From contig JACVTC010000029.1 in NCBI GenBank assembly GCA_016946835.1, forward strand, positions 1,037,501 through 1,101,500: 64,000 bases of DNA, read 5' to 3'. This document shows, one piece after another, positions 787 through 63,118 of the stretch (positions are counted from its first letter, which is position 1; each line of letters opens with the position of its first letter). Origin of the DNA: Neocallimastix lanati (nom. inval.). Its lineage: Eukaryota; Neocallimastigomycota; Neocallimastigomycetes; Neocallimastigales; Neocallimastigaceae. The translations under genes and the position numbers were made by a program. The notes under the pieces are model-generated. The model did not search any database. It was not told the origin of the DNA and worked only from the letters and a program-made list of their open reading frames with translations.

Positions 787-2189
787 GTACAGGTAAAACA
801 AAACAAAAACTACATATATATAGATAGATACGTAATAGAATAAATAGCAAAAAGGAGAAAAGCAATATAGAAATATAGAAATATAGAGGGAATAAAAAAA
901 ATAGAAAGAAAGAGAATAACCATATAGAAATATTGAAGATATATAGAAAAAAATAGTAGTAATAAGAATAAGAATAACTTAAAAGAAAAATAGGAATAGA
1001 GATAAAAAAAAAAAAAAACAGTGAAAAGAAATATAGAAATATAAAAAATATATAGAGAAAAAAGAATAGTAAAAAGAAATAGAGTCACTATAGAAATATA
1101 GAATAAATAGAGAAAAAAAATAGTAAAAAGAAAGAGAATAATTATGAAGAAGATATAGAGAAAAAACAAAGAATAATAAAAAGAGAGAGAATAAGTATAG
1201 AGAAATGTAGAATATATAGAGAAAAAATTAAAAAGAAAGAGAATAACTCTCGAAATATAGAATAATAAAAAGAATGAGAAAATAAAAGAATAGTAAAAAT
1301 AAAGAGAATAACTATATAGAATATAAAGAGAAGGGTTGATACAAATAAAATAGATAATTATAGTGATAAAAAATAGTTTATCAATGTATACATTATCAAT
1401 ATTATAGATAAATATATAATGATAATGTATTTAAATACGTTATCATAATAACGAATTAAATAATTAATATATTACATTACGTATAAAATTTTAATTACGC
1501 ATTACATTATGTATTATTCATTGTATATTTGTATACAAAGATAATTTATTTAATTTATAATTGTATATTATAAATACTATTTATAAATTTAAAAAATTTT
1601 AAAAATATTTATGTAAAATACAATTTATGAACTTTATTCATATATATTATAAATATAAATTTCTATAAGAATAAATTTGTATTATATATGAATTATAAAT
1701 AAAAATATATTCAAAAATATATTAAAAAATTGTATATATATAATATTTGTAATATATTATATATATATATTTTGATATATTAATATATTATATTGAACAT
1801 ATATAATATATATGTATAATATCAATAAAAATAAAATATATAAAAATATATATTTATATTAATATAAAAATAATACATCAATATATATTGTTTTTTAATA
1901 TATTCATATATTTTTATTTTATTTATATAATATATATATTGATATATTATATGATTATATATATTCATATATGATCAAATATTAAATGATCAAATATATA
2001 TTTTGAATATATATGAATATATATAAATAATATATTTTTATATTATAATATATATTAATAATAATTTTTTAATATTTATTTTTTTATTTATTTTATTTTT
2101 ATTTTTTTTTTTTAATTTATAATTATGGATTAAAACTAACGAATCATTTCATGTATTAATTTTTTTTTATTGGTTGTTATCCATGTTAG
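787..2189 (+). other. Large AT-rich intron of scaffoldin gene 1
   Basis: About 1.4 kb between donor GTACAG at 787 and acceptor TTAG at 2186-2189. The first half is a purine-rich AGAAATATAGA-type degenerate repeat (roughly 840-1330); the second half is TATATA-rich. Apparent open frames here on the minus strand (for example 810-1169) are low-complexity F/Y/I/L strings and are not believed. The intron is inferred from frame continuity and comparison with gene 2. Confidence 0.45.
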
Positions 2190-31177: not shown

Positions 31178-34100
31178 ATGGAAACTACTGAGAACCAAAA
31201 GGAAGAAATAAGCAAAATAAATAAAAATGTGGATGCTTCTAAGTTCATTGAGGCTATAACAGAGTTCGTTCCTACCTTTTTCTCACCTGGAGGGATGCTA
31301 CTAAAGGAAAGTGAGAAGAAGAACAATGGAAGTGTTTTAGAAACAATTATACAGAGCGAAAATTTCTTTGCCGACCATCCAAATTCTTTCCTGTCAGATG
31401 AAACCAAAAATACTTATGTAATTAATAAGTTAGGAGGACTTGCAAAGAAATGGGGGTTATCTTTGCTTGTGGATGGTACCCTGAGCACTTTAAAGTATGA
31501 AGAATTCAAAAATCTCTTACTTGAAAATTTTGACTCCGGAAACGAAAAGAAACAAAAATATATTCTTATAAATAAACTTATAAACTTACAACAACAAAAG
31601 TTGGGGAAAGCCGCAGAATATACCATCGAATTTAGAAAAATTGCTTCAAGACTGGGATGGCCAGATAGTGTCTTTATAGATATTATTGGAAAGGGACTAA
31701 TAGATCAAGTCAGAGATGAATTTGATAAAGTAAAAAACCCAAAGACTTTATTTGAGGCAACCAATATAATAATAAACATTGATAAGAAATGCTACATCGA
31801 AAATAGTTTAAGAGGTTGTAGCTCTGAAGATCCTAGAAGAAAAAGTAAAACTTTTGGAAGAAAGAAATATGAGTTAAATAAGACAAGTAATAAAAACTTC
31901 TTTAAATCAAAATTTAACAATAAACAGAAGAAAGAAGTCCTCTCTGCAAACTACACTCCGGACAAGTCAACTACTATGGTTACTACGTTTGTAATTCTTT
32001 TAAACGAACGAAAACAAAAAATAAACTTTCTTATTGATTCTGGATCAGCCAAAAGCTTTATGTGTAAGAACTTCATAATTGCTAATAGGATCCCGACTTC
32101 AGGACTTACTTCCCCCATAAACATCCAATTGCCTAATAGTAAGAGTATGACTATTAAGCAAGTAACAAAACCAGTAAAAATTAAATTCTTAGATCACGAA
32201 GAGAAATATGAATTTCTTGTGGGAAACTTACAGCTTAATGGAATTAGTGGAATCCTCGGAAGAGATTGGCTTTCTAAGCACAATCCTTATATCGATTTTA
32301 AAAATAACAAGATATATTTCTTAGAATGTTTCTGTAGTAATCATTGTCCTTCAGCAAAAGGAAACAAATTTGTTTTTCATTCCTCTGAAGTAGCCGCGCC
32401 AATGGTTGACGATACTACTGATTCAATAATTCCTTCTTCCATTTCAGAAGATGAACTTTACGAAAATGATATATGCGGAGCTATGCCCGAAATTAAAAAA
32501 GAACTTTCAAGGACAGAAAAAATAATTAACAAATATTACAAATATCTAACTCTTGTGTTTAAAAAACAGGAGGCTGACAAATTGCCTCCACATAGGCCAT
32601 ACGACATATCCATTGATCTTATCCCTGGAAGTCAACTCTATTTTGGTCCAATTTACTCATTGTCACAAGTCGAAATGAGTGCACTTAAAGATTATATCAA
32701 AGAAAATATTATTAAAGGATTCATAAGAAAATCCAGATCACCCGCTGGTGCTCCAATTTTATTTGTAAGAAAACCAGATGGAACCCTCAGACTTTGTGTT
32801 GATTATCGGAGGCTAAACGCAGTAACTATTAGAAATAGCTATCCTCTACCAAGAATTAATGACTTGATTGAAGCCTTTAAGGGATCCAAAATATTTTCAA
32901 AGTTAGACCTAAGATCGGCCTACAATCTTGTTAGGGTTAAAGAAGGCCATGAATATCTCACAGCATTCAGAACTCCCATCGGCCATTTCGAATACTTGGT
33001 GATGCCCTTCGGATTAAGAAATGCTCCGTCCGTATTCCAGCATTTTATTCAAGATGTCCTTGGTGAACTTATTGGTGATCACGTCCAAGTTTACTTGGAT
33101 GATATAATTATTTACTCAAATAATCTTGAAGATCATATCGTTCATGTTAAAAATGTGCTTTCGTTATTAATAAAAAATGGCCTATATGTTAAGAAAGAAA
33201 AATGCGAATTCCATGTTAAAGAAACAACTTTCCTTGGATTTACAATTTCGGTTAACGGCCTCACAATGGATCAAAATAAAGTAAAATCGATAATTGAATG
33301 GCCAACTCCTAAGAATGTTAAGGAATTACAAAGTTTCCTTGGACTTTGTAATTTCTATCGAAGATTTATAAAAAATTTTGCCGAAATTATGGAACCTCTC
33401 CGCATACTTTTGAAGAAAAATAGTGAATATATCTGGAATGATCAAGCCGAAAATGCTTTCAAAAATCTCAAAAAATCTTTTTTATCCAATGAAATCCTTA
33501 TCTTTCCAGACTATAACAAAGAATTTATTGTCGAAACAGACGCAAGCAACTATGCTATTGGTTGTGTCTTATCTCAAATCTCAGAAAATGATCAGCTACT
33601 TCATCCTATTGCGTTCTACTCAAGGTCTCTTAACTCGAATGAAAAGAACTATACAATTTATGATAAGGAACTCCTTGCCGTTATAACAGCCTTTGACGTA
33701 TGGAGGCACCATTTAGAAGGTGCGAAGTATCCAATTCAAGTTATAACGGACCACAAAAACTTGTTGTACTTAAAGAAACCACAACATTTAAATCAACGAC
33801 AAATACGATGGAGTCTCTTCTTATCTAAATTTGATTTTCGTATTTCCTACAGACCTGGAACTAAAAGTGGAAAGCCAGATTCCTTATCAAGAAGGCCGGA
33901 TTATCAAGAAAATAATTTCCCAATAGCATGTGCCATTCCCAATGACAACCCAATATGCTGTACAGCTTATGAAAAAATTGATAAATTAATCGATTTACAA
34001 AAACAAGACAAATTCTGCAAAGAAACAATGAGCAAACTAAAATCTAAATCAAAAGAAATCAAAAGCTCATTGTTTAGTCTTATTCGTGGTGTTCTACACT

Positions 34101-35218
34101 TCCAAGGACGAATAATAGTGCCATCTCTTCTTAGAACAAAGATTTTACAATCTTTTCATGACTCCCCTTTAGGCGGTCACCAAGGAATCCATAAAACTAT
34201 GGATAAATTAAAACGTTATTATTGGTGGCCTAACATGAGGAAGGATGTTGAAAACTACATCCTATCTTGTGAAACTTGCGGAAGATGCAAAACCAGAAGA
34301 CATAAGCCTTATGGTAAACTTCTTCCTCTCCCGGTTCCTAAAAAACCATGGGAAATTATCGGTGTTGACTTTATTGTCTCATTGCCAAGTTCTCAAGATT
34401 GCTCGTGTATCATGGTTGTTTCGGATCACCTCACCAAAATGATCCATTTGGTTCCCTGTTCGGATGTTCCTTCAGCAGATCTTACTGCTAAGCTTCTTCT
34501 TTTCAACGTTTTTAGATATCACGGGTTCCCTAAAACGATCGTTTCCGATCATGGTAGTCAATTTTCTTCGGAATTTTGGACTTCTCTTTGTTCTGCTTTG
34601 CATATTCAGCCTAATCTCGCCACTGCTCACCACCAACAGTCTAATGGCCAAATTGAACGTGCAAATGCCGTTGTGGAACAATATCTTCGCTGCTACTGCT
34701 CTTCAGCACAAAATGAATGGTGTTATTACCTGCCTTTATGTGAATTTGCCTATAATAATTCGCTCCATCAGTCTATTGGTGTCTCTCCCTTCTATGCCAA
34801 TTTTGGATTTAATCCAAATAGTATTATTGATTCCCCTCCAATTCTTTTGAAGGATAATGCTTCAGTTCTTACAAGAGACTGGTCGGCCCATTTTCAATCT
34901 CTTCAAGCTCATCTGGTCAAAGCTAAAGAAGATTTCAAAAAGTATAATGACCTCAAGAAACAACATGGTCCAAATTTTAATATTAACAATAAAGTGTGGT
35001 TAAAAAGATATTATTTCACCAACGAGCCGGCGAAGAAGCTAGCTTCACAATACTTAGGTCCATTCAGAATAACGGAAAAATTAAAACGCATGAATTACCG
35101 GTTGGAACTTCCAAGTAATTTACACTTACATCCAATATTCCACATCTCCCAATTGGAACCCTACGTTGAAAGAAATCAAGATTTAAAAGAGCATTCCAAT
35201 TATGGGAACACATCCTAA
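31178..35218 (+). CDS. Gag-Pol polyprotein of Ty3/gypsy element
   Basis: A single 1,346-residue frame with no frameshift or stop. The N-terminal ~270 residues are gag-like without a CCHC zinc knuckle. Protease has LIDSGSAKSF (about residue 285). Reverse transcriptase includes LRLCVDYRRLNAVT, the LDLRSAYN block and the YLDDIIIYS catalytic motif. RNase H includes VETDASNYAIG. Integrase has the HHCC finger (GGHQGIHKTM ... CETCGRC) and DDE-type residues in VDFIVSLP, SDHGSQFSSEFW and the Glu of NGQIERAN. A GPY/F-like module (YLGPFRI) and HPIFHISQLEPY close the protein, which stops without a chromodomain. All catalytic motifs look intact. Start ATG 31178 follows stops in the leader. The stop lies about 9 bp before the 3' LTR, with a weak purine tract AAAGGG between. 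Confidence 0.95.
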   Translation: METTENQKEEISKINKNVDASKFIEAITEFVPTFFSPGGMLLKESEKKNNGSVLETIIQSENFFADHPNSFLSDETKNTYVINKLGGLAKKWGLSLLVDGTLSTLKYEEFKNLLLENFDSGNEKKQKYILINKLINLQQQKLGKAAEYTIEFRKIASRLGWPDSVFIDIIGKGLIDQVRDEFDKVKNPKTLFEATNIIINIDKKCYIENSLRGCSSEDPRRKSKTFGRKKYELNKTSNKNFFKSKFNNKQKKEVLSANYTPDKSTTMVTTFVILLNERKQKINFLIDSGSAKSFMCKNFIIANRIPTSGLTSPINIQLPNSKSMTIKQVTKPVKIKFLDHEEKYEFLVGNLQLNGISGILGRDWLSKHNPYIDFKNNKIYFLECFCSNHCPSAKGNKFVFHSSEVAAPMVDDTTDSIIPSSISEDELYENDICGAMPEIKKELSRTEKIINKYYKYLTLVFKKQEADKLPPHRPYDISIDLIPGSQLYFGPIYSLSQVEMSALKDYIKENIIKGFIRKSRSPAGAPILFVRKPDGTLRLCVDYRRLNAVTIRNSYPLPRINDLIEAFKGSKIFSKLDLRSAYNLVRVKEGHEYLTAFRTPIGHFEYLVMPFGLRNAPSVFQHFIQDVLGELIGDHVQVYLDDIIIYSNNLEDHIVHVKNVLSLLIKNGLYVKKEKCEFHVKETTFLGFTISVNGLTMDQNKVKSIIEWPTPKNVKELQSFLGLCNFYRRFIKNFAEIMEPLRILLKKNSEYIWNDQAENAFKNLKKSFLSNEILIFPDYNKEFIVETDASNYAIGCVLSQISENDQLLHPIAFYSRSLNSNEKNYTIYDKELLAVITAFDVWRHHLEGAKYPIQVITDHKNLLYLKKPQHLNQRQIRWSLFLSKFDFRISYRPGTKSGKPDSLSRRPDYQENNFPIACAIPNDNPICCTAYEKIDKLIDLQKQDKFCKETMSKLKSKSKEIKSSLFSLIRGVLHFQGRIIVPSLLRTKILQSFHDSPLGGHQGIHKTMDKLKRYYWWPNMRKDVENYILSCETCGRCKTRRHKPYGKLLPLPVPKKPWEIIGVDFIVSLPSSQDCSCIMVVSDHLTKMIHLVPCSDVPSADLTAKLLLFNVFRYHGFPKTIVSDHGSQFSSEFWTSLCSALHIQPNLATAHHQQSNGQIERANAVVEQYLRCYCSSAQNEWCYYLPLCEFAYNNSLHQSIGVSPFYANFGFNPNSIIDSPPILLKDNASVLTRDWSAHFQSLQAHLVKAKEDFKKYNDLKKQHGPNFNINNKVWLKRYYFTNEPAKKLASQYLGPFRITEKLKRMNYRLELPSNLHLHPIFHISQLEPYVERNQDLKEHSNYGNTS

Positions 35219-44187: not shown

Positions 44188-47100
44188 GAAAATTACTTCA
44201 TTTTAAGGATAAACTATGATAAACCCACTTATTACCTAAATATTTTATTTCTTCTTACCCATTGCCTTCCAATCTATAAAATTAATTGGATCCAAACCAA
44301 CAAAATCAGAACTTTCAGTGAAGTTAAGAAATTTAACAACAAATTTTCTTCTTTTGAAACTAAATCAATGGTTAAAGATTTTCTTTATAGTAGTATTTAC
44401 TCATCGTCTACTCAGTTCTTTAATCTTTGTGTCAGTTGGAACATTAATGGATGGAGTGATGAAAAACGTGATGGTATTAGATACTTTAATGAAATTTTTA
44501 AACCCATCTGTATTTGCTTGCAAGAGGTCGGTAATAGCCAATACTTTAATGTACATTCAAATAATTACCCATTTCTTTGTTACTATAATACAATTTTACG
44601 AAAATCTAATCCAAATATACCCGGTATGAGAGGTCTTAGTATAAGTGTACATCGTTCTTGTTCATTTTCTCCTGATCCTTTTGAATATAAGTATATTATT
44701 TCTGTCAACGTTAACTTCTTTTGGGGGAATTAAATGCACTATTGGTAATATTTATGTTCCTACGGTCACTCATAAGGAAGAAAGAAAGAATGCCTTTTCA
44801 GAAATTACTAATTGGATAAAGAAACATACTAATACACCTTCTATTCTTGTAGGTGACTTTAATATGTCTAAATCCCAATTAGATAGTTTACTTAATAAAT
44901 CATCATATCAGTGGTTCACTAAAAACTTATCAGGTCTCGATTTCACATGGGCTCGGGATGGTAGATCCTCTTGTATTGATCATGTTTTATTTAATTGTAA
45001 AATGAAGGAATACATTAATAAGGTATCTGTTTGTAGTACATTCAATGATATATCTGACCATTTCCCTCTTATCCTTTTCTGTAAGAAAGATGACTCAGAA
45101 GGTTTTCGTGCTCCAACTCTTTCTAGAAGATTCAAATGGTCCCAACACATGTGTAATGAAAAGCAAAATGAAATATTCTCAAGTAACTACTTCTCAATTC
45201 TTCTTAATGAATTTGATGATAATGAAGAACTAAGTTCTAATGAAATGGTCAATAAATTTATAGAAACAGCTAATAAAGTTGATGATAAAGTTCATGCCAG
45301 AGTTCCTTGTGATCTTAAAGGCTCAGCTTTCTACTGCCCTTATTATATCAAGAAACTTTCTCATGAAAAGCATGTTGCATTTAATGAAATCAAAAATTTT
45401 TCTTTCGATGATAATCTTGAAAACCTTGATGAATTTTTAAATTTGCTTAGTGAATATAAAAATATATGTGGTAAAGTCAGGTCAATTAAGTGTTCTATTA
45501 AATCAAAACAATTTCATCAGTCAATAGAATCTTCATGTAATGATTTTCGTAATAAAAATGCTAGGTGTGCTTGGTTAAAATTAAAGAAGCTATCTCACCC
45601 TATGTACTCTAATTCTATTTCGTCAAGCGTTTTAAAGGACAAGCAGGGTAACTTTTTATTTTCTCATTCGGATCAATTAAATCGATTTGCTGAACATTAC
45701 AATGAACTAGCTTCTGATGTTACTCAACACAGTTTGGATAATGAATACTGGGTAAGTTTATTTGGAACTAATCCTAATAATAATCCTGCTTGGGATATTA
45801 ATGATTCTATTACTATGGAAGAAATTCAAAACACTGTGCTTGATATGAAAAATAATAAAGCTCCTGAACCCGATGGTATTCCGATTGAATTTTTTAAAGC
45901 CTTCTTTAGTAAATCTGATTTATCCGATAATTAAAATGATTCTTCAGTTGATGACAACCCTGATTGTGCTAAATGTTTACTTTCATTATTTAACAAAATC
46001 TGGGATGGTGATTTCCCTGAAGAGTGGAATTCGGCTTATATAATATCAATTCCAAAAAAAGGAGATCTTTTGGATTGTAATAATTATCGTGGTATTTCTC
46101 TTATCAATGTTGGCTTAAAAATTATTTCAAAGATTGTTACTATTAGAATTGCTAAATATGCCCTTGAACATAAATTTGTTAGACCTGAACAATTTGGATT
46201 TAGAAATAAAGAAGAATGCATAAGTTTATATATTTCAATTAGAGAGATATGTCAAAGAAGAAATTTTAAAGGAAATTTTACTTATCTTGCTTTTCTCGAT
46301 CTTAAAAAAGCCTATGATTCAGTACCTATCTTTAATATTTTGACCAAATTATATAACTTAGGAATTAGAGATAAATATCATATGTTTTTAAAGAATATTT
46401 ATCTATCTTCTAAAGCTCGTGCTTTTTTTAATGGTAATCTCTCAGAAGAATTTTCGATTAATCGTGGTGTTAGACAAGGATGCCCTCTATCTCCTATTCT
46501 ATTCAATTTGTTCATTAATGATATACTGGATAATTGTGATAAGTATGCTGTATATTTAGATTCTCAATATTGTTGTGGTGGACTTTTTGCGGATGATATT
46601 GTTTTAGTTGCTCCATCTAAACAAGTTCTTAAGAAAATTTTGAATAAAGTTCATGAATGGGCTATTAAAAATGAAATGACTTTTGGAATTAATAAGTGTG
46701 CTATTCTTGTTGTAAAACCGATTAACTTTGTTAAACCGATAAACTATGAAGATCCATCTTTCTTTATTGATAGTAATAAATTACCTAAAACTGACAACTA
46801 TACCTATCTTGGTATTCCTTTTGATGAATCTTTATCACTGAAACCTATACAATCAAAATTAAACAGTAATTTAAATGTCAAGTTAAATTTGTACTTTCGA
46901 TTTCTTATTAATAAATTTATTCCTCTCCCATTGAAGAAATATGTTTTAATTTCGTTTATTCTTAGTCTTGTTATATATTATGCTCCTCTCTTTGGTTCAA
47001 ATAAGAGCAGATGTTCTAAAGCTCAAAAAAATTATTAATAAAGGACTTTATTGGAGTTATGGATTTAAATCTTGCAATTCTTATGTTAGTCTCTATGATA

Positions 47101-48238
47101 TTACTCGTGAATTGAGAATACCTCCTCTTTCAGCTATCTATGCAATATTTCAATTAACGATGCTTTAGAAAATGGAAAAATTCATCATGTATTATTAATC
47201 ATCTCACTAATAATATTCCTACTATGTCACATTACTCATGGACTAAAGAATCAAGGACTTTGGATAAGAAATTAAATGGTAAAAAAACAAGTGAAATAAA
47301 AAAGTTTTATTGGGAAAGAGATGTCTTCAAACCCTCAAAAGCTAAAAAAGCAATTATTTACAAGGAGAATGATTTTGGATTTATTTCAGAAATCAAAGAC
47401 TTAACATTTCAATATCCTAAGTATCAGTTGGGATTCTTTTGGATTTCTCGAATTAGGTGTGGTTTTAAATTTGACATTAGTATTTCCATTAAAAGAAAAA
47501 TCGTCTCAGAAGATTGCCCTATATACTGCCCTTGTTGTGGTGTTAGTATACCTAGATTTTCTCACTGGATCTTTGCCTGTAAAGAATTGGAAAATTACAG
47601 AAATAAATCTTTACCTTTTCTAGATGAACTCTTTTTGAAGTTTGCTATGATAATTGAACAAAAATCCTTGGATGTTTCTTTAGATTCAGAAAAGGATTAT
47701 GATAATAATATTTATTATTATATATTGAGTGCTCTTCTGGGGCGTTCAATATATTCAAAAATTAAAGTTAATGATGGGGAACATAGACAATTAGTTGACA
47801 ATATTTTTAGACGAAGTTCAACTTCGTCTACTGTTCCGTATTTTGTGGGGATTGCGGAGTTTTTAACAAACATAATACCATTAATTTGTCGATCTTTTAG
47901 ATTGATGATGAAATGGTATTCCATTGAATCTATCGTTGCCAAGAGCGTCGACGTTGAAATGATAAGGCATGGATTTTCATTTCCCGGTGAAATGACAGAT
48001 ACAGATTCGATTGATAACACTAATACTGATATTATTACTAGCAATAATGGACGTGGTGTTATTATCGAGGAGTGGGAAAAGTTAGAGGCTATTGCTTCTA
48101 ACGCACTTTTATAATTTTATAATATATAATATTTTATTTCATGTATTTTATTATTTTTTTTTCCTTTAAAATCATGTAATTTTATTATTGTTATAAATTA
48201 AATAAAGTTATTCTCTTAGTCTAAAAAAAAAAAAAAAA
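44188..48238 (+). mobile_element. Inactivated APE-type LINE with poly(A) tail
   Basis: The open frame from about 44188 gives an APE endonuclease start (SWNINGW, ICLQEVGNS). After a frameshift near 44700 it continues with GNIYVPT, VGDFNMSKSQLD and ISDHFPL. The reverse transcriptase follows in the same frame: NNKAPEPDGIPIEFF, TAA stop at 45932-45934, then NNYRGISLINVGLK, AFLDLKKAYDSVP, GVRQGCPLSPILFNL and the FADDIVLVAPS catalytic motif. Two more frame changes (about 47020 and 47165) lead to a C-terminal C-x2-C-x8-H-x4-C finger near 47525-47580. It ends at 48112-48114, then AATAAA and an A-tract (48223-48238). APE plus RT plus a C-terminal CCHC finger fits the Tad/I/R1/L1 superfamily range. No ORF1 was seen, so the copy is 5' truncated or ORF1 is unrecognisable. 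It is dead as it stands. Confidence 0.88.
45932..47038 (+). pseudogene. LINE reverse transcriptase domain (after in-frame stop)
   Basis: The frame resumes straight after TAA 45932-45934 and stays open to 47038. It holds fingers, palm (LDLKKAYDS, GCPLSP, FADD) and thumb. Because upstream and downstream share one frame, the TAA is a point lesion rather than a domain boundary. The catalytic Asp residues are present. Confidence 0.85.
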
Positions 48239-51107: not shown

Positions 51108-53240
51108 TTATATTATTAATAATACTAAATAACTTAATGAAATTATAAATGATACAATAATATAATTATAAAAATTTGGTTTACTTGTATCGTAATTACA
51201 ATCAGGATTTTGTGTAACTTTGCATTTTTCTGTAACTGTGACTGTAGTTGTTTTACTTTTAGTTTCTGTAACAGTAACTGTATGAGTGGAAATTAAAGTG
51301 GAGGTATTGCATTTTTCAAATATTGTTGTTGTTGATGGTTCACATTTCTCTGTTATTGTCATGATTTTAGTTAATGTTTCTGTTGTTGTTGTTTTAATAT
51401 TTATTGGACTTGCACTTATGATTTCATTTGTGATGTTAGTAGTTGATGAAATAGTTAATGAGGATATAGTATCATGAGCAGGTGATGTGGTTGATGTAGG
51501 TATAATATCAATAGTGAATGATGTTGATGAATATATATTATCAGTGTATGAAGTAGAAGATATAATATCAGTAGGAGATATAGTTAATGAAGACATAGAT
51601 GATCCAGTTGATGAAGTTATAGCAGTTGAGGATGTTATTATTAAATCTAATGTATTAATATCTTCAATATTTGTATTTGTATTAGTTGCTATTTTTGAAT
51701 CAATACTAGTAGTTGATTCCATAATAAATGATGTTAAACCATTTTTAACATCTGAAATATCTTTATCATTGCATAGCTTGTAATCATTACTAGAAATATT
51801 TTCACAAGTATCTTTTTGAATACAAAGTATAGTACTATTTTTCAACGAACATACAGAAATTGAATTACCAAAATTTATTATTTTTGCTGTTAAATTTAAA
51901 TTATTTGAAATATCTCTATAAAAATGAGTAATATAATATATTTTAAGAATTAATATATAAATATTAAAATAAATAAAATATATATGTATATTTACAAAAT
52001 ATTTAAATGAGATAACTTAAATAGAGTATTTGGTAACCATTCAAGATTAGAATAAGAAATATTTCTTTTTATTATATATAATATAAAAATTAATAAATAT
52101 TTTAAGAATAAATTATTAATTATGAATATATTATTAAAAATAAATAAATAAATAAATAAATATTTTTTATTATTATAAATATGTTAGATTTTCCAAATTA
52201 TTTATATTTGATGGCAAATATTTAATATTTTTATTTAAACTTAAATTTCTGTATAATTTTTTTTTTTATAAATTAAATTATGTTAAAATTGTTATATGTA
52301 AAAATTTTAATTTTAATATTAAAAAAAATAATATAATTAAAATTTTATTACAATGAAGTTAAAGATTGTATTCCCATAATGTATGTTAAATCATTATCTA
52401 TTAAAGTATTATTAGATATATTTCTATATAATATTTAATTTAAAAGATAAAAAAAAATTAATAGATATTTTTATATATTTTTAAATTTGTTTTAAAATTA
52501 TTATTTAAATTTTTATAAAACTATATACAAATATTCTAATTTGGTTAATTTATTAAATGAGGATGGAATACTACTCAATTTCTTATTAGATAAATCTCTA
52601 TTTTAAAAATTTTTTTAAAATATAATAAAATAAAATAAAATAAAATAAAATAAAATAAAATAAAATAAAATAAAATAAAATAAAATAAAATAAAATAAAA
52701 TAAAATAAAATAAAATAAAATAAAATAAAATAAAATAAAATAAAATAAAATAAAATAAAATAAAATAAAATAAAATAAAATAAAATAAAATAAAATAAAA
52801 TAAAATAAAATAAAATAAAATAAAATAAAATAAAATAAAATAAAATAAAATAAAATAAAATAAAATAAAATAAAATAAAATAAATAAAATAAAATAAAAT
52901 AAAATAAATAAATAAAATAAAATAAAATAAATAAAATAAAATAAATAAAATAAAATAAAATAAAATAAAATAAAATAAAATAAAATAAAATAAAATAAAA
53001 TAAAATAAAATAAAATAAAAAGAATATATTAATATTAAATATTAATTGTAAAATTTTTAATTATAAATATTATTTTAATAAATATTGTTATTTATTATTA
53101 ATTTAAAATTAATTATTTATATATTTACATTTTAGTTATATGGTTGTTGTTACAAGTAATTTTATCATTTTTGCAACAGTCATATATATTATTTTCTCCT
53201 ATTAGGTTGTTAATGATTTTACATTCTTCATAAATTGTTT
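51108..53240 (-). other. LRR gene cassette 5 and C-terminal stalk/anchor
   Basis: Cap 53129-53240 (EECKIINNLIGENNIYDCC); LRRs 52529-52597 (69 nt), 52352-52423 (degenerate, 72 nt), 52177-52248 (72 nt, AT donor), 51996-52064 (69 nt); final exon 51108-51915. The final exon opens with an LSNN-like LRR start and two Cys positions shared with the EGF exons, then diverges into Ser/Thr/Ile repeats, TVTVTE motifs and a hydrophobic C-terminus. LRRs here are the most diverged of the gene. Confidence 0.75.
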
Positions 53241-56200
53241 CTATATTGTTATTAAATGATGATATTAGATGAAATATTAAATTAATCAAATAGGTAAATT
53301 ATTAATAAACTATTAATTTTATACATTTATATACTTTTTATATATAGAAAAAAAGAAAATATCTTACCATTAAAACATTTGATATAACCTATACCAGAAT
53401 ATCCATTGTTACATTTGCAAACGCCATTAATAAGTGAGGCATTAGGTTCACATTTCGTACAATCATAATAAGTTTCTGGGTATGAACAGTCAGAAAGTTT
53501 TTCCGATTTGGAATAACATAAAGATGTATTATAATATGTACATGAAGGATTATCCTTTTTCGGTTTAAAATAAATATTTCCAGATAAATTAGGATTATTA
53601 TCTAAAGATCTAAATTTTAAAATTTTATTTAATTCATTAAAATTTTTTATTTTATTATAAATTTATAGGAATCATTTTTAAAATTTATTTAATTTATTAT
53701 AAATATATAGGAATCATTTTTAAAATTTATTTAATTTATTATATCACAATATCATTTTAATCATAAAATTAATTTTTTATTTCATTATTATAAAATTTAT
53801 AAATTAATATATATAATATAAAATAATTACAAATATATTAAATTTTCTAATTTTCCAATTGAAGTTGGCATTTCTCCACTTAAATTATTATTAGATATAT
53901 CTCTAATTTTATTAAAAAATAAATTTATTAAGATAATTGTGAAAATTAAATATGATTATTTTATTTTATTAATTTATTAAATAATTATTAATAAATATAT
54001 TAAAATAATATTTACAAGTATTCTAAGTTACTTAAATTTCCAATTGTTGAAGGAATACTTTCTAAATTATTATTATACAAAAATCTTTTTTTTTTTTATA
54101 AATTAATAAAATATTTAATAATATAAATAATATAATGTTCTATACCATAATATAATGTATTTTATTAATAGGTTTATTTAATTCATTATATAAGAATATT
54201 ACATTTCTTTAACTTTAGATAAGTTGCCAATTGAAGCAGGAATATCGCCACTTAAATTATTGTAAGATAATTCTCTTTATTTTGTTAATTAAAAAATTAA
54301 TAATGAATAATATAAAAATATGAAAATTAATAATAAATATATATATTATATATCTTATTTACAGAAATGTTAAATTATTTAAATTTCCAATTGATGATGG
54401 TATTTCTCCTTTAAAATTATTGCTTCTTAAAAGTCTATTTTAAAAAAAAAAAAAATAATTAATTAAATAATAAAAATTATTGTATTAAATTTTAAAAAAT
54501 ATAAAAATAAAATTAAATATTTACAAATATTCTAATTTAATTAATTTTCCAATTGAAGAAGGAATTTCATTTATATGTGATTTTGAATCACTATATTTAT
54601 TAAATAAATAAAATGTAATATGTTTTTTCAATTTTAAATGAATTTTTTAATATTAATAAATTAATATTAAAAAATTATTTATATTAATAAATAAATAATA
54701 AATAAAATTAATTTTAATATATATAAATATTAAATAATGAAAATAATTAAATACATTAAAATTTTAGTTATATGACCGTCTTCACAAGTAATATCATATA
54801 CATCAGATTCACAACAATTATATGATTCTTCTTCTCCAATAATAGCATTTATAATTTTACATTCTTCATATATATCTTTGAAAAAATTATATATGAATTA
54901 ATAAAAACATACTTATATATAAAAAAAAATTAAATTCGTTTTTTTTTTTTTAAATTCAAATTAAATTTATATTATAACTTCATTTTAATATATTAATATA
55001 ATAGAATTACCTAATAAACTTTGATCATCATTTTCCTCATTATTTTCATTTTCTAAAATTTTTATTTATAAAAATTATTAATGAGAAAAACAATTTTTTT
55101 TTTTTTTTAATATATATTCTATAATTCTAATATTTTTATTTTAAAATTTTAAAATAATAAGCCATCTTTACCATTTGTACATTTAATATAGCCAATACCA
55201 ATATAGTCATTGTTACATTGGCATATATCATCAATAAGTGACGCATGAGGTTTACAATCAGTACAATCGTAATTTGTTTTTGGATAAGTACAAAGAGAAT
55301 TTACTTCTTCTTTTAAATAGCATAAATTTGTATCACTTAGTTTACATTTTCTCAAGTTTTTATTATTATTTAAAGAAATCTTCCCATATAAATCCTCATT
55401 ATACCTCAAATCTCTAAAATATCAATTATATATATAAATAAATATTTTAATTGAATATGTATAATTTTTTTTAAATTAAATGCTTTTATATAAAAATATA
55501 AATTAACAATAATATATATTATATATATATTTGATAAAATATATAAAATATATAAAATAATATTATTATATAAATTACTAATATTAATATATAAATATAT
55601 ATTTGCATACAAATCTTTCAAATTACTTAAATTTCCAATAGAAGATGGAATTTCACCACTTAATTTATTACTTGATAAATCTCTATTAAATTTTATAAAA
55701 AAAATTAATATATATCAATAATAATATATTATAATATATTTTATAATATATTATGAATAAAAAGTAATATATTTACAATTCTAATAAATTACTGAAGTTA
55801 TTGAATGAAAAAGATATTTCACCACTTAAATTGTTATTAGATAAAATTCTATTATATATATATATTTTTAATTTTTTTGTTAAATAATTAAAGGAATAAA
55901 AAAAAATATACTCTATATAATAATAATATTTTTTTTTTTTATTTTATATATAAATGGAAAATATACAATTTTGTTAATTTATTTAAATTATTAATTGATG
56001 GAGGAATGGAACCACTTAATTTATTATAAGATAATACTCTATTTTAATAAATTGATAATTTTATATAATATTAATAAGTAATAATATTAACATTAATATT
56101 CATATTATAATATATTATATTTTATAGTAATATTAAAATTTACAATTCTGTTAAATTTTCTAAATTACTAATTGAAGAGGGAATAGAACCACTTAAATTG

Positions 56201-59200
56201 TTATTACTAAAAGATCTTCATAAAGTATTAGTATTATAAAAACAGAATATAATTAACGTTAGATTTTAGTATTTAATAAACGAATTTATATTTTATATTA
56301 AAATTAAATTAATATTAACAATTTCTTTAATTTTTTTAATTTTCCAATTGAAGAAGGAATAGATCCGCTTAAACTATTATCATATAAAAACCTAATAAAG
56401 AAAAAAAAGATAATCAATAAAATTTAATTTATTTATAATTTTTTTAGTTTAGAGAAGGATTTGCTATAAGATTCTTACAATTCAATTAAATTATTTAAAT
56501 TTCCAATTTCAGATGGTATAGTACCATATAAATTACTACTAGATAGAGTTCTATATTATCATGATATTAAATTATTTGAATTAATAAAAATATTAAAAAT
56601 TTATACAGTTATATTAGGTCCAAAAAAATAATTATAATAAAAAATTAAAAATCATAGTTTTATTAATTATTAGTTATTATAATAAATATTTACAAGCTTT
56701 CTAATTTACTTAGTTTACCAATTGAAGAAGGAATAGGACCAACTAATTTGTCATTATGTAAATTTCTAGTAAATATTTAGAGAGAATAAATTTTAATGCA
56801 TAAGAATTATTTTTTCATTATCGTTGTTATAAAATATATTATTAAAATATATTTTTATAAAATATAATATATATACATTTTTATTATTTGATTATCTTTG
56901 CATGTAATATCTTCATGTTCACAACAATCATAGAATTCATCTTTTCCCAATAGAGAACTAATAGTTTTGCATTCTTCATAAATTGTTGCTTTTTTTACAA
57001 TATTTATATTATTTATTTTATTTTTTTTATAAAATAAATATATATTATATATATAAAATATCGAAACAAAAAAAAAAAAAAAAAAAAAAAATTAAAATAA
57101 AATAAATAGTATATAATTAAAATTATTATTTATTTATAATTTTCAAAATATATATTTTTTTATAAGCATAATTTTTCACGTATATATTATTTAAATATAT
57201 TTAAATAATAAAAATAGAAGAAGATAAAATAATGATTTTTACAGTTTGTACATTTAAGATAACCAACTCCAGTATAACCATTTTTACAATAACAAACATC
57301 ATTTGTAAGTGATGCATTTGCTACACATTTTGTACAATCATAATTATTATTTGGGTAAGAACATTCAGAATTCATTTCTGATTTTGAATAACATAGAGAA
57401 GTATCTTCAAAAAAACAATAATTTATATTTTTAAATGTATTTACTGAAATTTTCCCTGATAAATGTGGATTATTACTCAAAACCCTTTAATATTAAAATA
57501 TTTTAAGTAAATAATAAAATTTAAATTTTATTGTAATATAAATATTAATATAAATAAAATTAAATTATTATTTAAGTTTTTATTTAAAAAATATAATATA
57601 TTATATTTTATATACATTAATAATAAATATTTTTAATACTTTTATTAATATAATTAATATTATTAAAAATTTACAGTTGTTCTAAATTAGTTAATTCTTT
57701 CAATGATAAAGGAATATAACCACTTAAATTATTATCAGATAATACTCTATTTAATTTATAAATAAAAAATATATTATATATTCCAACAATATTAATATTT
57801 TATGAGCTTTTATATAGCTAAAAATAATAATATATTGGGATTTGAATAGAATAATAAAAATGAAATGGTTACAGATTTTTTAATTTAGTTAATTTTCCAA
57901 TTGAAGAAGGAATAGGACCACTTAAATTATTTTCACTTAAATATCTTTTATTATTACAAAAAATAATTATAAATTATTAATTTAAATTATTTATATATAA
58001 ATTATTATTATTACTTTGTATAATTTTTTTATAAAAAGTATTATAGAAAACTTACAGAGATAATAAATTTTTTAAATTACAGATCGTAGAAGGAATAGTA
58101 CCTGTCAGTTGATTTTTAATTAAAGATCTATTTTTTGAAAGGAAATAAATTTCAATAATAAACAATAAATTATAAAATTATATAAAAAATTATAAAAAAA
58201 TTTATTTATTTTCAATATAAATAATATACGATTTATATTATTTACAAATATTTTAGATAACTTAAGTCACCAATTGAAGAAGGAATTTCACCAGTTAAAT
58301 AATTATTATCTAAATATCTTTATTTTATAAATTAATAATAATTATTATTTAATTATATTTAAAAATTTCAGATAAAAAAGGAAAAACAATCTTACAATGT
58401 TTCTAAATTGCTTAATTTACCAATGGAAGAAGGAATTGTACCATATATTTCCATACTATTTAAATCACTATTTATATAAAAAAAAATTTTAAAATAAATT
58501 CTGAATATTTATAATACTAATAAATATTAATAATAAAAATACATTTCAGTTATATGATTATCTTCACATGTAATTCTTTGGTGGTTACAACAATTATATG
58601 ATTCATTTTCACCTAATAGGCTATTAATAATTTTACATTCTTCATCTATTCCTATAATATTTTTGTATAATATTTTGTTAATGTTTTAATTTAATTAATT
58701 GTATTTGTATAAACAATAAGAATTATATATTAAAAATACTATTAAAGATATATATTTTTATTAAATTCTTTATTATTTTAATAATTTAATGTAAAAAAAA
58801 TATATATAAATATCATACCAATTCCGTTATTATTAGTGTTATCTTATTTGTAATAATAATTATATTATTATATAATTAAATAATTTTTAACATTTTATTA
58901 ATAATTATTATATTTTAAAAAAGAATCAATTACTTAAAAAATTGTTTTAAATAATTTAATCAATATTTATATAAAATAGTTAATAATTTACCAATTCTAC
59001 ATTTAATATATCCAACACCATTATATCCACTATTGCAGGTACAATAATCATCTTTTAATGAAGAATTTGGTTGACAATTATTACATATATAATCAGTTTC
59101 AGGATAGGTACATTTAGAATTTTTTTCCGTAAAACATATAACAGTATTTGTTAATTCACAAACTGACAAACTTGCTTTACCACTAATATATATTTTTCCT

Positions 59201-60472
59201 GCTAAATTTTCATTATTACTTAAATCTCTGTAAATAATTATTTTTAATAAAATATTTATAATAAATAATAATTATAATAATAATAAAATTTAATTATTTA
59301 TATAAAAAAAAATTATAATATTATATTATATCCACTATTATAAATAAAAATTTTGAACATAATAAATATTAAATTATAATTTACTTTTAAATTAATAATA
59401 TTTTATTATTTAAAATAACAAAATACGTACAAATAGTCTAATTTAGTTAATTCTGAAATAGAAAAAGGAAGATAACCATTTAATTTGTTATTACTTAAAA
59501 CTCTGTTTTAATGAATATATAATAAAAAATTATATTATTAATAATATTAAATAGCATTTTAAATAAAAATACAATTATATATAAAATAAATATTATACAA
59601 ATATTCTAATTTGCTTAATTTTCCAATTGAATAAGGAATTTCACCTTCTAATTTATTATCTGATAATATTCTATTTTTTTTAATTATTAAATAAAATTAT
59701 GGAAAAAGATTTTTAATAAATGAAAAAATAATAGTATTAATTATTAATGGCTTCAAAAAAAATATTACAAAATTTCTAGATTTTTTAAATTTCCAATTGT
59801 AGAGGGAATTGTGCCATTTAGTTTGTTATTATTTAAATATCTATTTTATTTTTATTTATTATTATTATTTTTTTTTTTTTTTTTTAAAAAAAAAGTAATA
59901 CATAAAATAATTTATATTATTAATTATATAAATTTTAATGATAACTAATAATAGAAAAAAATAAATTTAATAATAGTTACAAAAACTTTAAATTAGTTAA
60001 ATTTCCAATTGAAGAAGGAATATGACCACTTAAATTATTATAGTTTAAATATCTTTTTAAAGAATTTTTTAATATATAATTACATTATTAATTTTATATA
60101 TCATATTATATAAAATTATTAAATATATAATTTTATAGATAGTTAATTATATTATTTACAAATATTGTAAATTAGTTAATGTATCAATGGACGAAGGAAT
60201 AGAACCGTTTAAATTTTTTTCTTGTAAATTTCTTATTTACAAAATATATAAATAATATTAATAGTTTGATCAAAAATAAATTATTAAAAATAATACAATA
60301 CTTATTATGAAGTATTATATATCAATAATAATTTATTTATTTTATAAAGGTTTATTTTATATATTATTTATTTACATTTTTATTATATGATTTTCTTTAC
60401 AAATAATTCCATCGTGATTACAACAATTATAAGATTCATCATTTCCTAATAAAATATTTACAAATTTACATT
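51108..60472 (-). CDS. Multi-exon LRR/EGF-like cell-surface protein
   Basis: At least 38 exons can be joined in one frame from 60472 down to the TAA at 51108. Five cassettes recur: a Cys cap exon (EEC ... LLG ... YxCC ... ITC ... HI), four to seven plant-type LRR exons (consensus L-S-x-N-x-L-x-G-x-I-P-S-S-I-G-x-L) and an EGF-like exon with eight Cys ending C-x-C-x(2)-[GD]-Y-x-G-x-G-Y-x-K-C. I count 26 LRR exons, mostly 72 nt, all entered and left in phase 2 with GT...AG introns. The last exon (51108-51915) starts like an EGF exon, then becomes a Ser/Thr-rich stalk and a C-terminal helix (FIISLSYLVLLII), so the protein is wall- or membrane-anchored. Estimated length is about 1,400 residues. 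The first cap exon at 60376-60472 needs an upstream leader exon that I could not find. One donor (52175-52176) is AT, not GT. Adhesion or recognition is inferred. Confidence 0.78.
52626..53021. repeat. (TAAAA)n pentanucleotide array inside an intron
   Basis: About 396 bp of almost perfect TAAAA units with a patch of TAAA variants around 52880-52950. It lies in the intron between the cassette 5 cap exon and its first LRR exon, making that intron much longer than the others. Confidence 0.95.
53368..55052 (-). other. LRR gene cassette 4 with acidic linker micro-exon
   Basis: A 42-nt acidic linker exon at 55011-55052 (ENENNEENDDQSLL, phase 1 to 1), cap 54755-54875, LRRs 54525-54590 (66 nt), 54363-54434, 54203-54274, 54016-54084 (69 nt), 53831-53902, EGF-like 53368-53609. 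The cap exon is two codons longer and the first LRR two codons shorter than usual, so the exon boundary has slid without changing total length. Confidence 0.75.
55172..56988 (-). other. LRR gene cassette 3: cap, 7 LRRs, EGF-like
   Basis: Cap 56877-56988 (EECKTISSLLGKDEFYDCC); LRRs 56694-56765, 56479-56550, 56320-56391, 56144-56215, 55967-56038, 55777-55848, 55611-55682 (all 72 nt); EGF-like 55172-55413 (CQCNNDYIGIGYIKC). It is the longest cassette, two LRRs more than its neighbours. Confidence 0.8.
57243..58842 (-). other. LRR gene cassette 2 with 24-nt linker exon
   Basis: Possible linker micro-exon 58819-58842 (Asn-rich, phase 1 to 1); cap 58543-58651 (ECKIINSLLGENESYNCC); LRRs 58396-58467, 58246-58317, 58056-58127, 57873-57944, 57675-57746 (all 72 nt); EGF-like 57243-57484 ending CYCKNGYTGVGYLKC. 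Joins with cassettes 1 and 3 keep frame in phase 1. Confidence 0.78.
58992..60472 (-). other. LRR gene cassette 1: cap, 5 LRRs, EGF-like
   Basis: Exons in plus coordinates: cap 60376-60472; LRRs 60160-60231, 59981-60052, 59769-59840, 59599-59670, 59431-59502 (all 72 nt); EGF-like 58992-59227 with Cys pattern VCELTNTVICFTEKNSKC ... CTCNSGYNGVGYIKC. Each LRR exon begins one base after AG and ends with two bases of a Leu codon. Confidence 0.8.
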
Positions 60473-63118
60473 CTATTATATTATTTTATTTTTTTATGTA
60501 TATGTATTAATAATTAGATATATACAATTAATTAATGATTAAAATTCAATAAATTATATTATATATATTTAAAAATAATATTTAAAATAATATTATTTTT
60601 ATTATATAATTTTTTGTATTTTTAGCTAATATTTTTCATTATATATAATAACCTCCTATATATTGACTATCCCTTTGAGAAACTGGTTGTAATAAATATT
60701 AAAGATATAAATAATAACACATATAAAAAAAGAAATATTAACACATATCCTAGATTTTATTTATTATAATAATATATGATATATATAAATTTTATAACAT
60801 TTTATAATTCTATTATGATTTTAAATATATAAAATAGTAAAATTCGTTATACTATATTAAATAAATAAATAATATAATACTTTTGAAAAATTTCAATTCA
60901 GTAAGAATCAAAATTTTTGTATGTTTTTATAAGATATTAATTTAAATATTCTATTTTATTTTAATAAATAATTTTTATAAATATTTGTTTTTTGAAACAT
61001 TTTACTACATTTGTTTTCAGTAGCTTTCACATTTTTAATAGTTAATAATAATAAGTGTAACGATATTATTAAAAATCTAATTTAGTATAATAAAACATTA
61101 ATAAAAGTTTATATTAACTTTTTTTTGTTTCATATTATAATATTTTATAATTTAAATGTTTTCTTTCTACATACTGTAGAATTTTATTAAATATAGTATA
61201 TAATAATGCCATTGTTTTACTTCAAGAATTTAATGAATAAAAATATATAATAAAATAAACAAATCATTAAATATATAAATAGTTAATTTAATTTTAAAAT
61301 TGTTCAGATATTAAATTATACCACATTTTTATTATATAATTATCTCATTAATCTTTAGTATTTATATCAATTTTTATCATCATCTATTAAAATATATTAA
61401 TAGAATAATAAAAAAATTTCAGTTTAAATCTTTAAAAAAAGTTCAATTTAATTAAAAAATGATTTTAGGTTTTTTAAATTTAATAAAAAATAATTTCTAT
61501 ATTTATTAAAAAAATGATAAAATAATAATAATATTTAATAATGTGAATCATTTCGACATAATTTATGTATAATCATCATAAATTTTTGTACAATGTGTAA
61601 AATATGTGTAATACGCCACTATTTTCAACGTATATTTTTATTTATTGTATTTTAGCATTAAAAAATAAAATAAAAATAAAAACAAAAATAAATTTAACCC
61701 TATTTCTATTCATTTATTTTTACAAGCCACATTATAATACATGAATAAATGATCAAACATAAATTATGTCGAAATGCAATACTCCCTCCTAAAACTAATA
61801 TTATTCTTATACTATGATCTCAAGAATTACTATAATTTAATATTTATTATTCTTGGACAGAGAACTAAAACTATTTCTATGTATTTTTCTCTTTTATAAT
61901 TATTTTCTTTAATAAAGTTTTCCTATATTAAATTATAAATATTAATTTAATGGTTAAATAATAAAAATATATAAATTTATTTCTAATAAAAATACAATAA
62001 AAACTAGATTAATACATAAATTTATGCATTTACTACATTTCTTATTAACATAAAATTATTATTAATTAGAGTTTTTATATCTATTTTATATCATTTATTT
62101 TATATTAAACTTATTTCTAACAAACTTTATTTCTAACACTATTTAAATTTTAAAGTAAAATTTCTTATTAAATATATATTTGTTATATATTATATTTCTC
62201 AATTTTTTAATTATTAAATATTTTATTATAAAATTATTTTTATATCATGGAAAGCATAATATTGACTATAAATTAATATTGTATTTTATGATATAAATAT
62301 TACAACACAAAATATATTATTATAATTAAATAATAAATTTTAAATATTAGATTAAATATTTTCCGTTATTATAATAAATAAAATTTTAAATGTTAGAATT
62401 TAAAAAAATATAAAATTTTTTAATATAATTATTATTAAAAATATTCCTATATTCCACAAAATAATAATTTAATATAAACCTTAATGTATAATAATTTAGT
62501 TATAATTATATTACTTTTTTGGATTAATTATTATCCCCTTTTTTGTGTTGTGAGATAAAAAATATAATGTAAAATTACATAATAAAAACATAAACATAAA
62601 TAGAACATTTTTAACAATAAAAAATTAATATTTATTGAGCAATGAAAATTTATTATTATAATTTAAATAAATAATAAATTTAAAATTAGATTAAATATTT
62701 TCCGTTATTATAATAAATAAAGTTCTAAATGTTAGAATTTTTTAATATAATTATTATTAAAATATTCCTATATTCCATAAAATAATAATTTTAATATAAA
62801 CCTTAATGTATAATAATTTAGTTATTTTACTTTTTTTTGGATTAATTATTATCCGCTTTTTTGTGTTGTGAGATAAAAAATAGTAAAATATTTATATAAT
62901 ATAATATAAAATTATATAATAAAAACATAAACATATAATGAACATTTATTTTTTTATTTGAGAAAAGTATAAAAAGATTAAAAAATTATTTAAAATAAAC
63001 AAATTAAATTTAAATATCTAATAATAAAAAACAAATCAAAATAATAATTTTGATAAGAATTAAATAACATTAAATATTAATCAAAAAAAAAAAAAAAAAA
63101 AAAAAAAAGAAAATAGAA
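60473..63118. other. Intergenic region between LRR gene and mannanase
   Basis: About 2.6 kb with no recognisable gene. It must hold the missing 5' end of the LRR gene (minus) and the mannanase promoter (plus). It includes CGAAATG/GCCAC motif relics at 61549-61640 and 61725-61780, and a tandem duplication at 62325-62950. Confidence 0.55.
62325..62950. repeat. Tandem duplication (~339-bp period) upstream of mannanase
   Basis: The segment with TTCCGTTATTATAATAAATAAA at 62361 recurs at 62700, and TTTTGTGTTGTGAGATAAAAAATA at about 62541 recurs at about 62861, in the same order with small indels. The right copy ends about 170 bp before the start codon. Confidence 0.8.

What the first reader, a model, noticed from the sequence alone, without database searches (positions are those of the whole stretch)
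51108..60472. One LRR per exon: modular 26-repeat surface protein with cassettes
Almost every 24-residue LRR is a separate 72-nt phase-2 exon with short AT-rich introns, and caps and EGF-like modules are also single exons. Exons are symmetrical, so LRRs can be added, lost or skipped without frame damage. Five [cap-LRR-EGF] cassettes in one chain are unusual; the LRRs have the plant-receptor-like SGxIPSSIG consensus. In a rumen fungus this could be a diversifying recognition or adhesion system for plant wall or microbes.
Basis: partly seen in the sequence, partly recalled or inferred. Interest (0 to 1): 0.8.

Follow-up and report, generated by a model that had tools for sequence, protein, structure and literature searches.

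The report
Fungal surface protein, one-repeat exons
A gut-fungus-like genome carries a gene for a chain of five plant-receptor-like recognition modules in which each repeat sits in its own tiny exon; its relatives include likely membrane receptors, although an older survey concluded that fungi lack such receptors.

Summary
The gene model holds up as sequence. On the minus strand, 51108-60472, 38 predicted exons join into one open frame of 1,415 codons with a single terminal stop. All 26 LRRs are separate phase-2 exons: 22 of 72 nt, three of 69, one of 66. Twenty LRR-like 72-nt phase-2 exons were counted against a mean of 0.012 in 500 shuffles. Cap exons run phase 1 to 2 and EGF-like exons 2 to 1, so only LRR exons, two linkers and whole cassettes are frame-neutral. 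The fifth cassette ends in a Ser/Thr stalk, not an EGF-like module.

It belongs to a family: 15 of 20 other loci scanned hold such exons (13 were chosen by a pattern that requires a donor). Seven relatives have a membrane segment with a tail by hydropathy; six carry PPxYxEV. Exon length, phase and intron position match rice LRR kinases (PMC3050792); brown algae share length and phase (PMC11378527). So: a new fungal variant of a known architecture, at odds with a survey reporting LRR receptors almost absent in fungi (PMC2939053). Recent exon gain and positive selection were not shown; start codon, splicing and ligand are unknown.

The parts
60376..60472 (-). cap 1 exon (97 nt, phase 1 to 2), cysteine cap
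60160..60231 (-). LRR exon L01, 72 nt, phase 2-2
59981..60052 (-). LRR exon L02, 72 nt
59769..59840 (-). LRR exon L03, 72 nt
59599..59670 (-). LRR exon L04, 72 nt
59431..59502 (-). LRR exon L05, 72 nt
58992..59227 (-). EGF-like exon 1 (236 nt, phase 2 to 1), begins with a partial LRR
58819..58842 (-). small linker exon (24 nt, phase 1-1), lower confidence
58543..58651 (-). cap 2 exon (109 nt, phase 1 to 2)
58396..58467 (-). LRR exon L06, 72 nt
58246..58317 (-). LRR exon L07, 72 nt
58056..58127 (-). LRR exon L08, 72 nt
57873..57944 (-). LRR exon L09, 72 nt
57675..57746 (-). LRR exon L10, 72 nt
57243..57484 (-). EGF-like exon 2 (242 nt, phase 2 to 1)
56877..56988 (-). cap 3 exon (112 nt, phase 1 to 2)
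56694..56765 (-). LRR exon L11, 72 nt
56479..56550 (-). LRR exon L12, 72 nt
56320..56391 (-). LRR exon L13, 72 nt
56144..56215 (-). LRR exon L14, 72 nt
55967..56038 (-). LRR exon L15, 72 nt
55777..55848 (-). LRR exon L16, 72 nt
55611..55682 (-). LRR exon L17, 72 nt
55172..55413 (-). EGF-like exon 3 (242 nt, phase 2 to 1)
55011..55052 (-). small acidic linker exon (42 nt, phase 1-1), lower confidence
54755..54875 (-). cap 4 exon (121 nt, phase 1 to 2); donor lies 6 nt further 3' than the usual place
54525..54590 (-). LRR exon L18, 66 nt
54363..54434 (-). LRR exon L19, 72 nt
54203..54274 (-). LRR exon L20, 72 nt
54016..54084 (-). LRR exon L21, 69 nt
53831..53902 (-). LRR exon L22, 72 nt
53368..53609 (-). 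EGF-like exon 4 (242 nt, phase 2 to 1)
53129..53240 (-). cap 5 exon (112 nt, phase 1 to 2)
52616..53020 (.). (TAAAA)82 array inside the intron between cap 5 and L23
52529..52597 (-). LRR exon L23, 69 nt
52352..52423 (-). LRR exon L24, 72 nt, degenerate LRR
52177..52248 (-). LRR exon L25, 72 nt, donor reads AT instead of GT
51996..52064 (-). LRR exon L26, 69 nt
51108..51915 (-). terminal exon: partial LRR, cysteines, Ser/Thr-rich stalk, hydrophobic C-terminus with nothing after it
60959..61081 (-). signal-peptide-like open stretch (by eye) with no in-frame ATG before it; possible 5' exon, unresolved

Best explanation
One minus-strand gene encodes a large cell-surface protein made of five plant-type LRR solenoids in series, each opened by a cysteine cap, four of them closed by an EGF-like cysteine module, and attached to the surface through a Ser/Thr stalk and a hydrophobic C-terminus (GPI signal or tail anchor). 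It most likely works as a multivalent binding or adhesion protein without a cytoplasmic signalling part, in a family that also contains likely single-pass LRR receptors with PPxY tails. The locus grew by two frame-neutral moves: duplication of single LRR exons (phase 2-2) and duplication of whole cassettes (phase 1-1). Shown at sequence level: exon grammar, family, motifs, hydropathy. Inferred: single transcript, splicing, anchoring type, binding role, duplication history.
For: 20 LRR-like 72-nt phase-2 exons against 0.012 expected. Joining all 38 exons gives one open frame with a single, terminal stop and rebuilds the 24-residue LxxLxLxxNxLSGxIPSSIGxL register across junctions; LRR_1 scores 1.6e-49 on the first 761 spliced residues. 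None of the five caps has an in-frame ATG ahead of it in its open stretch, whereas in 11 of 13 relatives whose cap exon was read an ATG-headed hydrophobic leader lies in the same open stretch. EGF exons 1-4 have phase-1 donors that fit the phase-1 acceptors of what follows, while in C113, C522, C13 and C3 the EGF-like frame runs into a hydrophobic end and a stop. C157 shows the same phase-1 joint between two cassettes. Six of seven loci found by EGF match, and 15 of 20 loci in all, hold 72-nt phase-2 LRR exons. Best PDB matches of cassette 1 are plant LRR receptor kinases. The hydrophobic C-terminus is the end of the protein.
Against: No transcript. No start codon assigned. L25 has no GT donor; L24-L26 are poor LRRs by eye. 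Splice sites were picked at AG/GT, so their agreement is partly by construction. EGF-like module not recognised by Pfam; its fold prediction failed (mean pLDDT 39). Trees of caps and EGF modules did not show that the five cassettes arose within this gene. No recent exon duplication visible. Anchoring rests on hydropathy only, and the C157 two-cassette relative has a weak end (0.89). No ligand evidence.
Confidence: 0.68

Rival explanations
1. Several independent neighbouring LRR genes (one per cassette), not one chain.
For: One-cassette members exist (C113, C522, C13). Read on without splicing, EGF exon 2 runs into a short hydrophobic run before its stop.
Against: Caps 2-5 lack an in-frame ATG and leader; EGF exons 1-4 have phase-1 donors that fit the next phase-1 acceptors; the joined frame stays open through all five.
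Confidence: 0.1
2. A decaying gene or pseudogene: the array is a relic of a once functional member.
For: No start codon found, one donor without GT, degenerate LRRs in the last cassette, a (TAAAA)82 array in an intron.
Against: All 38 exons are open in the joined frame; four cysteines invariant in 5 of 5 caps and eight in 4 of 4 EGF modules.
Confidence: 0.2
3. The LRR exon unit came from plants by gene transfer with its introns, which would explain the equal exon length, phase and intron position.
For: Same 72-nt length, phase 2 and place in the first Leu of xxLxLxx as in rice LRR kinases (PMC3050792 passages); nearest PDB sequences are plant; gut fungi are reported to hold a plant-like lyase (PMC6712302 passages).
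Against: LRRNT_2 finds none of this gene's caps; no kinase match in the terminal exon; EGF-like module; brown algae share length and phase (PMC11378527), so convergence or old ancestry suffices; the plant-like lyase was judged not orthologous to related enzymes.
Confidence: 0.1
4. An immune-like receptor system: the exon grammar serves alternative splicing or fast turnover of LRRs to change specificity.
For: Brown algal ROCO genes with 72-bp phase-2 LRR exons are reported to splice alternatively (PMC11378527); relatives with membrane segment and PPxYxEV exist; in the pair C742/C357 dN/dS is about 0.83 over LRR exons and the cap has 7 non-synonymous against 0 synonymous changes.
Against: No transcript data; six and six 72-nt LRR exons in the one recent pair compared; LRR position classes at 0.57 and 0.89, not above 1; no recent exon copies in the window gene.
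Confidence: 0.25

Closest known systems
Brown algal LRR-ROCO genes (PMC11378527, passages seen)
   Same: One LRR per 72-bp phase-2 exon, tandem arrays, frame-neutral exons.
   Different: GTPases with ROC-COR; here cysteine caps, EGF-like modules, hydrophobic C-terminus and repeated cassettes; alternative splicing reported there, untested here.
Plant LRR receptor kinases with many exons (rice, PMC3050792, passages seen)
   Same: 72-nt exon for one LRR, phase 2, intron in the first Leu of xxLxLxx; SGxIP-type LRRs; N-terminal cysteine cap in the PDB alignment to GSO1.
   Different: No kinase found; caps not found by LRRNT_2; cassettes repeated; EGF-like module.
[quoted passage not shown]
   Same: Arrays of equal LRR exons with phase-2 introns in a lineage-specific family.
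   Different: 90 bp not 72; thousands of young genes there, tens of clusters here.
Fungal LRR proteins surveyed by Soanes and Talbot (PMC2939053, abstract and passages seen)
   Same: Kingdom; after removing doubtful models they keep five LRR-receptor genes in four fungal species and list fifteen secreted LRR proteins in ten.
   Different: They conclude that LRR receptors are almost absent in fungi; here one genome has tens of split-LRR clusters and seven relatives with membrane segment and tail by hydropathy.

Membership tests
Plant-specific LRR class (24 residues, SGxIP; class name recalled) | 24-residue repeat with SGxIP | tested here: met
   22 of 26 LRR exons are 72 nt; among these 22, G 20, P 20, conserved Leu columns 19-21
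One-LRR-per-exon genes (plant, brown alga) | LRR exons of 72 nt, phase 2 | tested here: met
One-LRR-per-exon genes (plant) | intron in first Leu of xxLxLxx | tested here: met
   junction codons in the spliced frame against the wording of PMC3050792
Brown algal ROCO | ROC-COR domains | tested here: not met
   no such Pfam match in the parts scanned (the LRRs of cassettes 4 and 5 were not scanned)
Brown algal ROCO | alternative splicing of LRR exons | not testable with these tools
   no transcripts held
Plant LRR receptor kinase | kinase domain after TM | tested here: not met
   terminal exon has no Pfam match at E up to 1 and ends in a hydrophobic stretch
LRRNT_2 (PF08263) | profile match of the N-cap | tested here: not met
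   two weak matches in the genome, neither in this gene
EGF domain | profile match and canonical cysteines | tested here: inconclusive
   eight invariant cysteines with an EGF-like C-terminal half by eye; best Pfam EGF hit E 0.06, below cut-off; fold model failed
LRR receptor as defined in PMC2939053 (LRR plus one TM helix) | single TM helix | tested here: inconclusive
   window gene: C-terminal hydrophobic end only; C742, C357, C179, C156, C157m, C113b and C47 have an internal hydrophobic stretch with a tail, by hydropathy, not TMHMM
Tetrahymena 90-bp LRR genes | 90-bp exons | tested here: not met
   72/69/66 nt

The most novel reading that the evidence does not exclude
An anaerobic gut fungus has its own large repertoire of extracellular LRR recognition proteins, including true single-pass receptors with a shared PPxYxEV tail motif and multi-solenoid surface chains, built from a two-level frame-neutral exon grammar (single LRRs 2-2 inside cassettes 1-1); such receptors would be overlooked in fungi because each exon alone is too small for domain searches.
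Probability: 0.35. Interest if true: 0.85.

Novelty: new variant of a known kind. Interest (0 to 1): 0.62.

Why it matters
A survey of 101 eukaryotic genomes, 49 of them fungal, concluded that LRR receptors are almost absent in fungi (PMC2939053, abstract and passages). A gut-fungus-like genome with tens of split LRR clusters, some with a membrane segment and tail, reopens that question and makes it testable with ordinary RNA-seq. It also adds a fungal case to a recurring exon plan (72 nt, phase 2) described in plants and brown algae, which bears on whether the plan is old, copied or favoured by the repeat itself. Practical point: the six-frame LRR_8 search did not list the window gene (only 150 of 361 candidates were scored), so intron-blind searches can hide such genes.

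Tried and rejected
Fold of the EGF-like exon from four window sequences: mean pLDDT 39, not used. Trees of 10 EGF modules and 12 caps: 6 of 7 and 6 of 9 inner branches open, so cassette history is undecided. Pattern of the LRR exon end without the donor: 589 matches against 612 for the reversed control, uninformative; with the donor 140 against 17 (100 places listed, a few of them low-complexity or with a stop, so the 49 clusters include false ones). The first LRR regex was wrong and matched 0 of the 72-nt exons; replaced. PPxYxEV DNA pattern: 11 matches against 28 for the reversed control, so the motif is not enriched as such; 6 of the 11 lie in or just behind LRR genes of this kind; at the other 5 places (C7, C34, C90, C490, C112) no LRR exon was seen in the 2.8-3.5 kb fetched. 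In C179, C156, C113b and C47 motif and membrane segment share one frame; in C742 and C357 they lie in separate open stretches, and that they are one gene is inferred. Of the 21 loci, five had no 72-nt LRR exon (C3 is mostly N; C1, C135, C323 and C24 hold other LRR types or none recognised). C1 looked like recent exon copying but is mainly a tandem gene duplication. Plant gene transfer and immune-like diversification were kept as rivals only.

Literature on LRR proteins in anaerobic gut fungi: 3 papers with both terms; 1; 0; 2,299 papers hold 3 of 6 broad terms, 15 listed; by title and start of abstract none is about such receptors; none of these was opened. Spelling variants and subscription papers may be missed. 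Exon plan.

Full report
WHAT IS THERE. The finding lies on the minus strand. From 60472 down to 51108, 38 predicted exons (5 caps, 26 LRRs, 4 EGF-like modules, 2 small linkers, 1 terminal exon) join into a frame of 1,415 codons with one stop, the last; the first codon is incomplete because its first base lies in an unknown upstream exon. One search lacked L23 (52597-52529, 69 nt), which one search added. Of 37 donors 36 read GT and L25 reads AT; the 38 acceptors read AG. Exon ends were picked at AG and GT, so this agreement is partly by construction. LRRs per cassette are 5, 5, 7, 5 and 4.

CHANCE. Open AG-72 nt-GT stretches in phase 2 occur 21 times in the region's minus strand, against a mean of 0.49 and a maximum of 3 in 200 dinucleotide shuffles; in the other 51 kb of the window, with its long coding frames, there are 13 and 24 on the two strands. 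With an LRR-like pattern the count in the region is 20, against 0.012 on average and at most 1 in 500 shuffles, and 0 in the other phases, on the opposite strand and in the rest of the window.

GRAMMAR. LRR exons are 2-2 in all 26 cases. Cap exons are 1-2, EGF-like exons 2-1, linkers 1-1. An LRR or a whole cassette can be added or skipped without frame damage; a cap or an EGF-like exon alone cannot. The split codon is the Leu that opens LxL in xxLxLxx.

ONE GENE OR SEVERAL. None of the five caps has an ATG ahead of it in its open stretch. In relatives the first cap usually shares an open stretch with an ATG-headed hydrophobic leader: C113, C157a, C157m, C522, C13, C379, C742, C179, C156, C113b and C47, that is 11 of 13 read; C357 and C468 did not show it. 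In C113, C522, C13 and C3 the EGF-like frame runs on into a hydrophobic end and a stop, while window EGF exons 1-4 have phase-1 donors; EGF exon 2, read on unspliced, does run into a short hydrophobic run. C157 has two cassettes with the same phase-1 joint. This favours one chain. The start of the window gene stays open: a leader-like stretch at 61081-60959 has no in-frame ATG.

FAMILY. A search with EGF exon 4 found 12 places, four of them in this gene. A search with cap 2 found 45 places at E up to 10; 18 have E below 0.001, five of these in this gene. C157 is the only other gene read with two caps; four weak cap matches within 12 kb on C4 were not examined. A pattern of the LRR exon end plus donor has 140 matches in the genome against 17 for the reversed pattern; the 100 listed fall into 49 clusters, 18 with two or more matches. 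Twenty loci besides this gene were scanned, 7 chosen by EGF match and 13 by that pattern, which itself requires a donor, so they are not an unbiased sample. In all 21, 108 of 175 LRR-like AG..GT candidates are exactly 72 nt and phase 2; 16 loci have at least one, among them 6 of the 7 chosen by EGF match. C44 alone has 25 with that pattern (26 with the looser one), so the window array is not the longest count of LRR exons; its five caps are the longest chain seen.

TWO LRR WORLDS. Three LRR genes in long frames without introns were looked at (C101 1,064 aa, C654 677 aa, C762 241 aa): they have LPxEIGNLxNL repeats, another LRR class. The other long frames were not read. In the loci read the SGxIP class is mostly split; C47 is in between, with several SGxIP LRRs in one exon.

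RECEPTORS AMONG THE RELATIVES. C742, C357, C179, C156, C157m, C113b and C47 have an internal hydrophobic stretch followed by a polar tail; the window gene, C113, C522, C13 and C3 end at or within one residue of theirs; the end of the two-cassette C157 gene is only weakly hydrophobic, 0.89. Six (C742, C357, C179, C156, C113b, C47) carry PPxYxEV, in four within the same frame as the membrane segment, in C742 and C357 in a separate open stretch downstream. These six are 6 of 11 genome-wide matches to the DNA pattern, whose reversed control has 28. That PPxY binds WW domains of Nedd4/Rsp5-type ligases is recalled; no call tested it.

EVOLUTION. In the window gene the 22 exons of 72 nt are on average 64% alike, at best 85% (L02 and L09). 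Among 36 of the 37 introns (the one over 400 bp left out) pair scores average 0.17 against 0.13 for mononucleotide shuffles, best 0.44 against a shuffled maximum of 0.41: marginally higher, no near-copies, hence no recent exon duplication. The pair C742/C357 keeps six 72-nt LRR exons one to one, exons 90-99% and five introns 81-96% alike; dN 0.055, dS 0.067, ratio 0.83; strand positions 0.57, the rest 0.89; the cap has 7 non-synonymous and 0 synonymous changes. The numbers are small and do not prove positive selection. Trees left the origin of the cassettes open.

COMPARISON. Rice LRR kinases: short exons of 72 nt, phase 2, first Leu of xxLxLxx (PMC3050792, passages). Brown algal ROCOs: 72 bp, phase 2, alternative splicing; gonadotrophin receptors share the phase (PMC11378527, passages). 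Tetrahymena: 90-bp phase-2 exons (PMC6564038, abstract and passages). Fungi: LRR receptors reported as almost absent in a survey with 49 fungal species, which kept five examples (PMC2939053, abstract and passages). Laterally acquired and plant-like genes in gut fungi: PMC6712302 (passages). The closest solved proteins to cassette 1 are GSO1, FLS2 and other plant LRR receptor kinases.

ORGANISM. CBM_10 has 1,440 first-look candidates, of which 150 were scored and all 150 matched, and a GH5-like frame, just under Pfam's cut-off, stands beside the gene. Both fit an anaerobic gut fungus; that such repeats are typical dockerins of this phylum is recalled.

VERDICT. A family-backed gene architecture that is far beyond chance; a new fungal variant of a known exon plan. 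Multivalent surface binding is the best guess, not shown.

Noticed in passing
window 2174-10429 and 17750-25624: Two long cysteine-repeat frames (2,751 and 2,624 aa), nearly alike over their second halves by eye, with YYxNxG..LIxC repeats and no Pfam match at E 0.01; recalled as similar to gut-fungus scaffoldins, untested.
   Followed up: partly
window 31178-35218: Open Ty3-type retrotransposon frame with gag, protease, RT, RNase H and integrase matches.
   Followed up: partly
window 44645-48114: Three consecutive open frames; the middle one matches RVT_1, probably pieces of a non-LTR element.
   Followed up: partly
L023 (C1:3152501-3158500): Tandem duplication, about 2.7 kb apart with units 81-99% alike, of a gene with another LRR type and a hydrophobic segment.
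   Followed up: partly
L025 (C44:101001-108500): Run of 25-26 72-nt phase-2 LRR exons in about 5.7 kb, ending near an N gap.
   Followed up: partly
L042 (C47:268501-272500): Receptor-like gene with several SGxIP LRRs in one exon and a PPNYEEV tail: possible intron-loss or precursor form.
   Followed up: no
L046 (C112:333401-336500): Multi-pass membrane protein frame with a PPSYDEVV stretch in the same locus, no LRR exon seen.
   Followed up: no
L019 (C223:2302001-2312000): EGF-like module read in two frames (possible extra intron or frame break) beside a long N gap.
   Followed up: no
   Followed up: no
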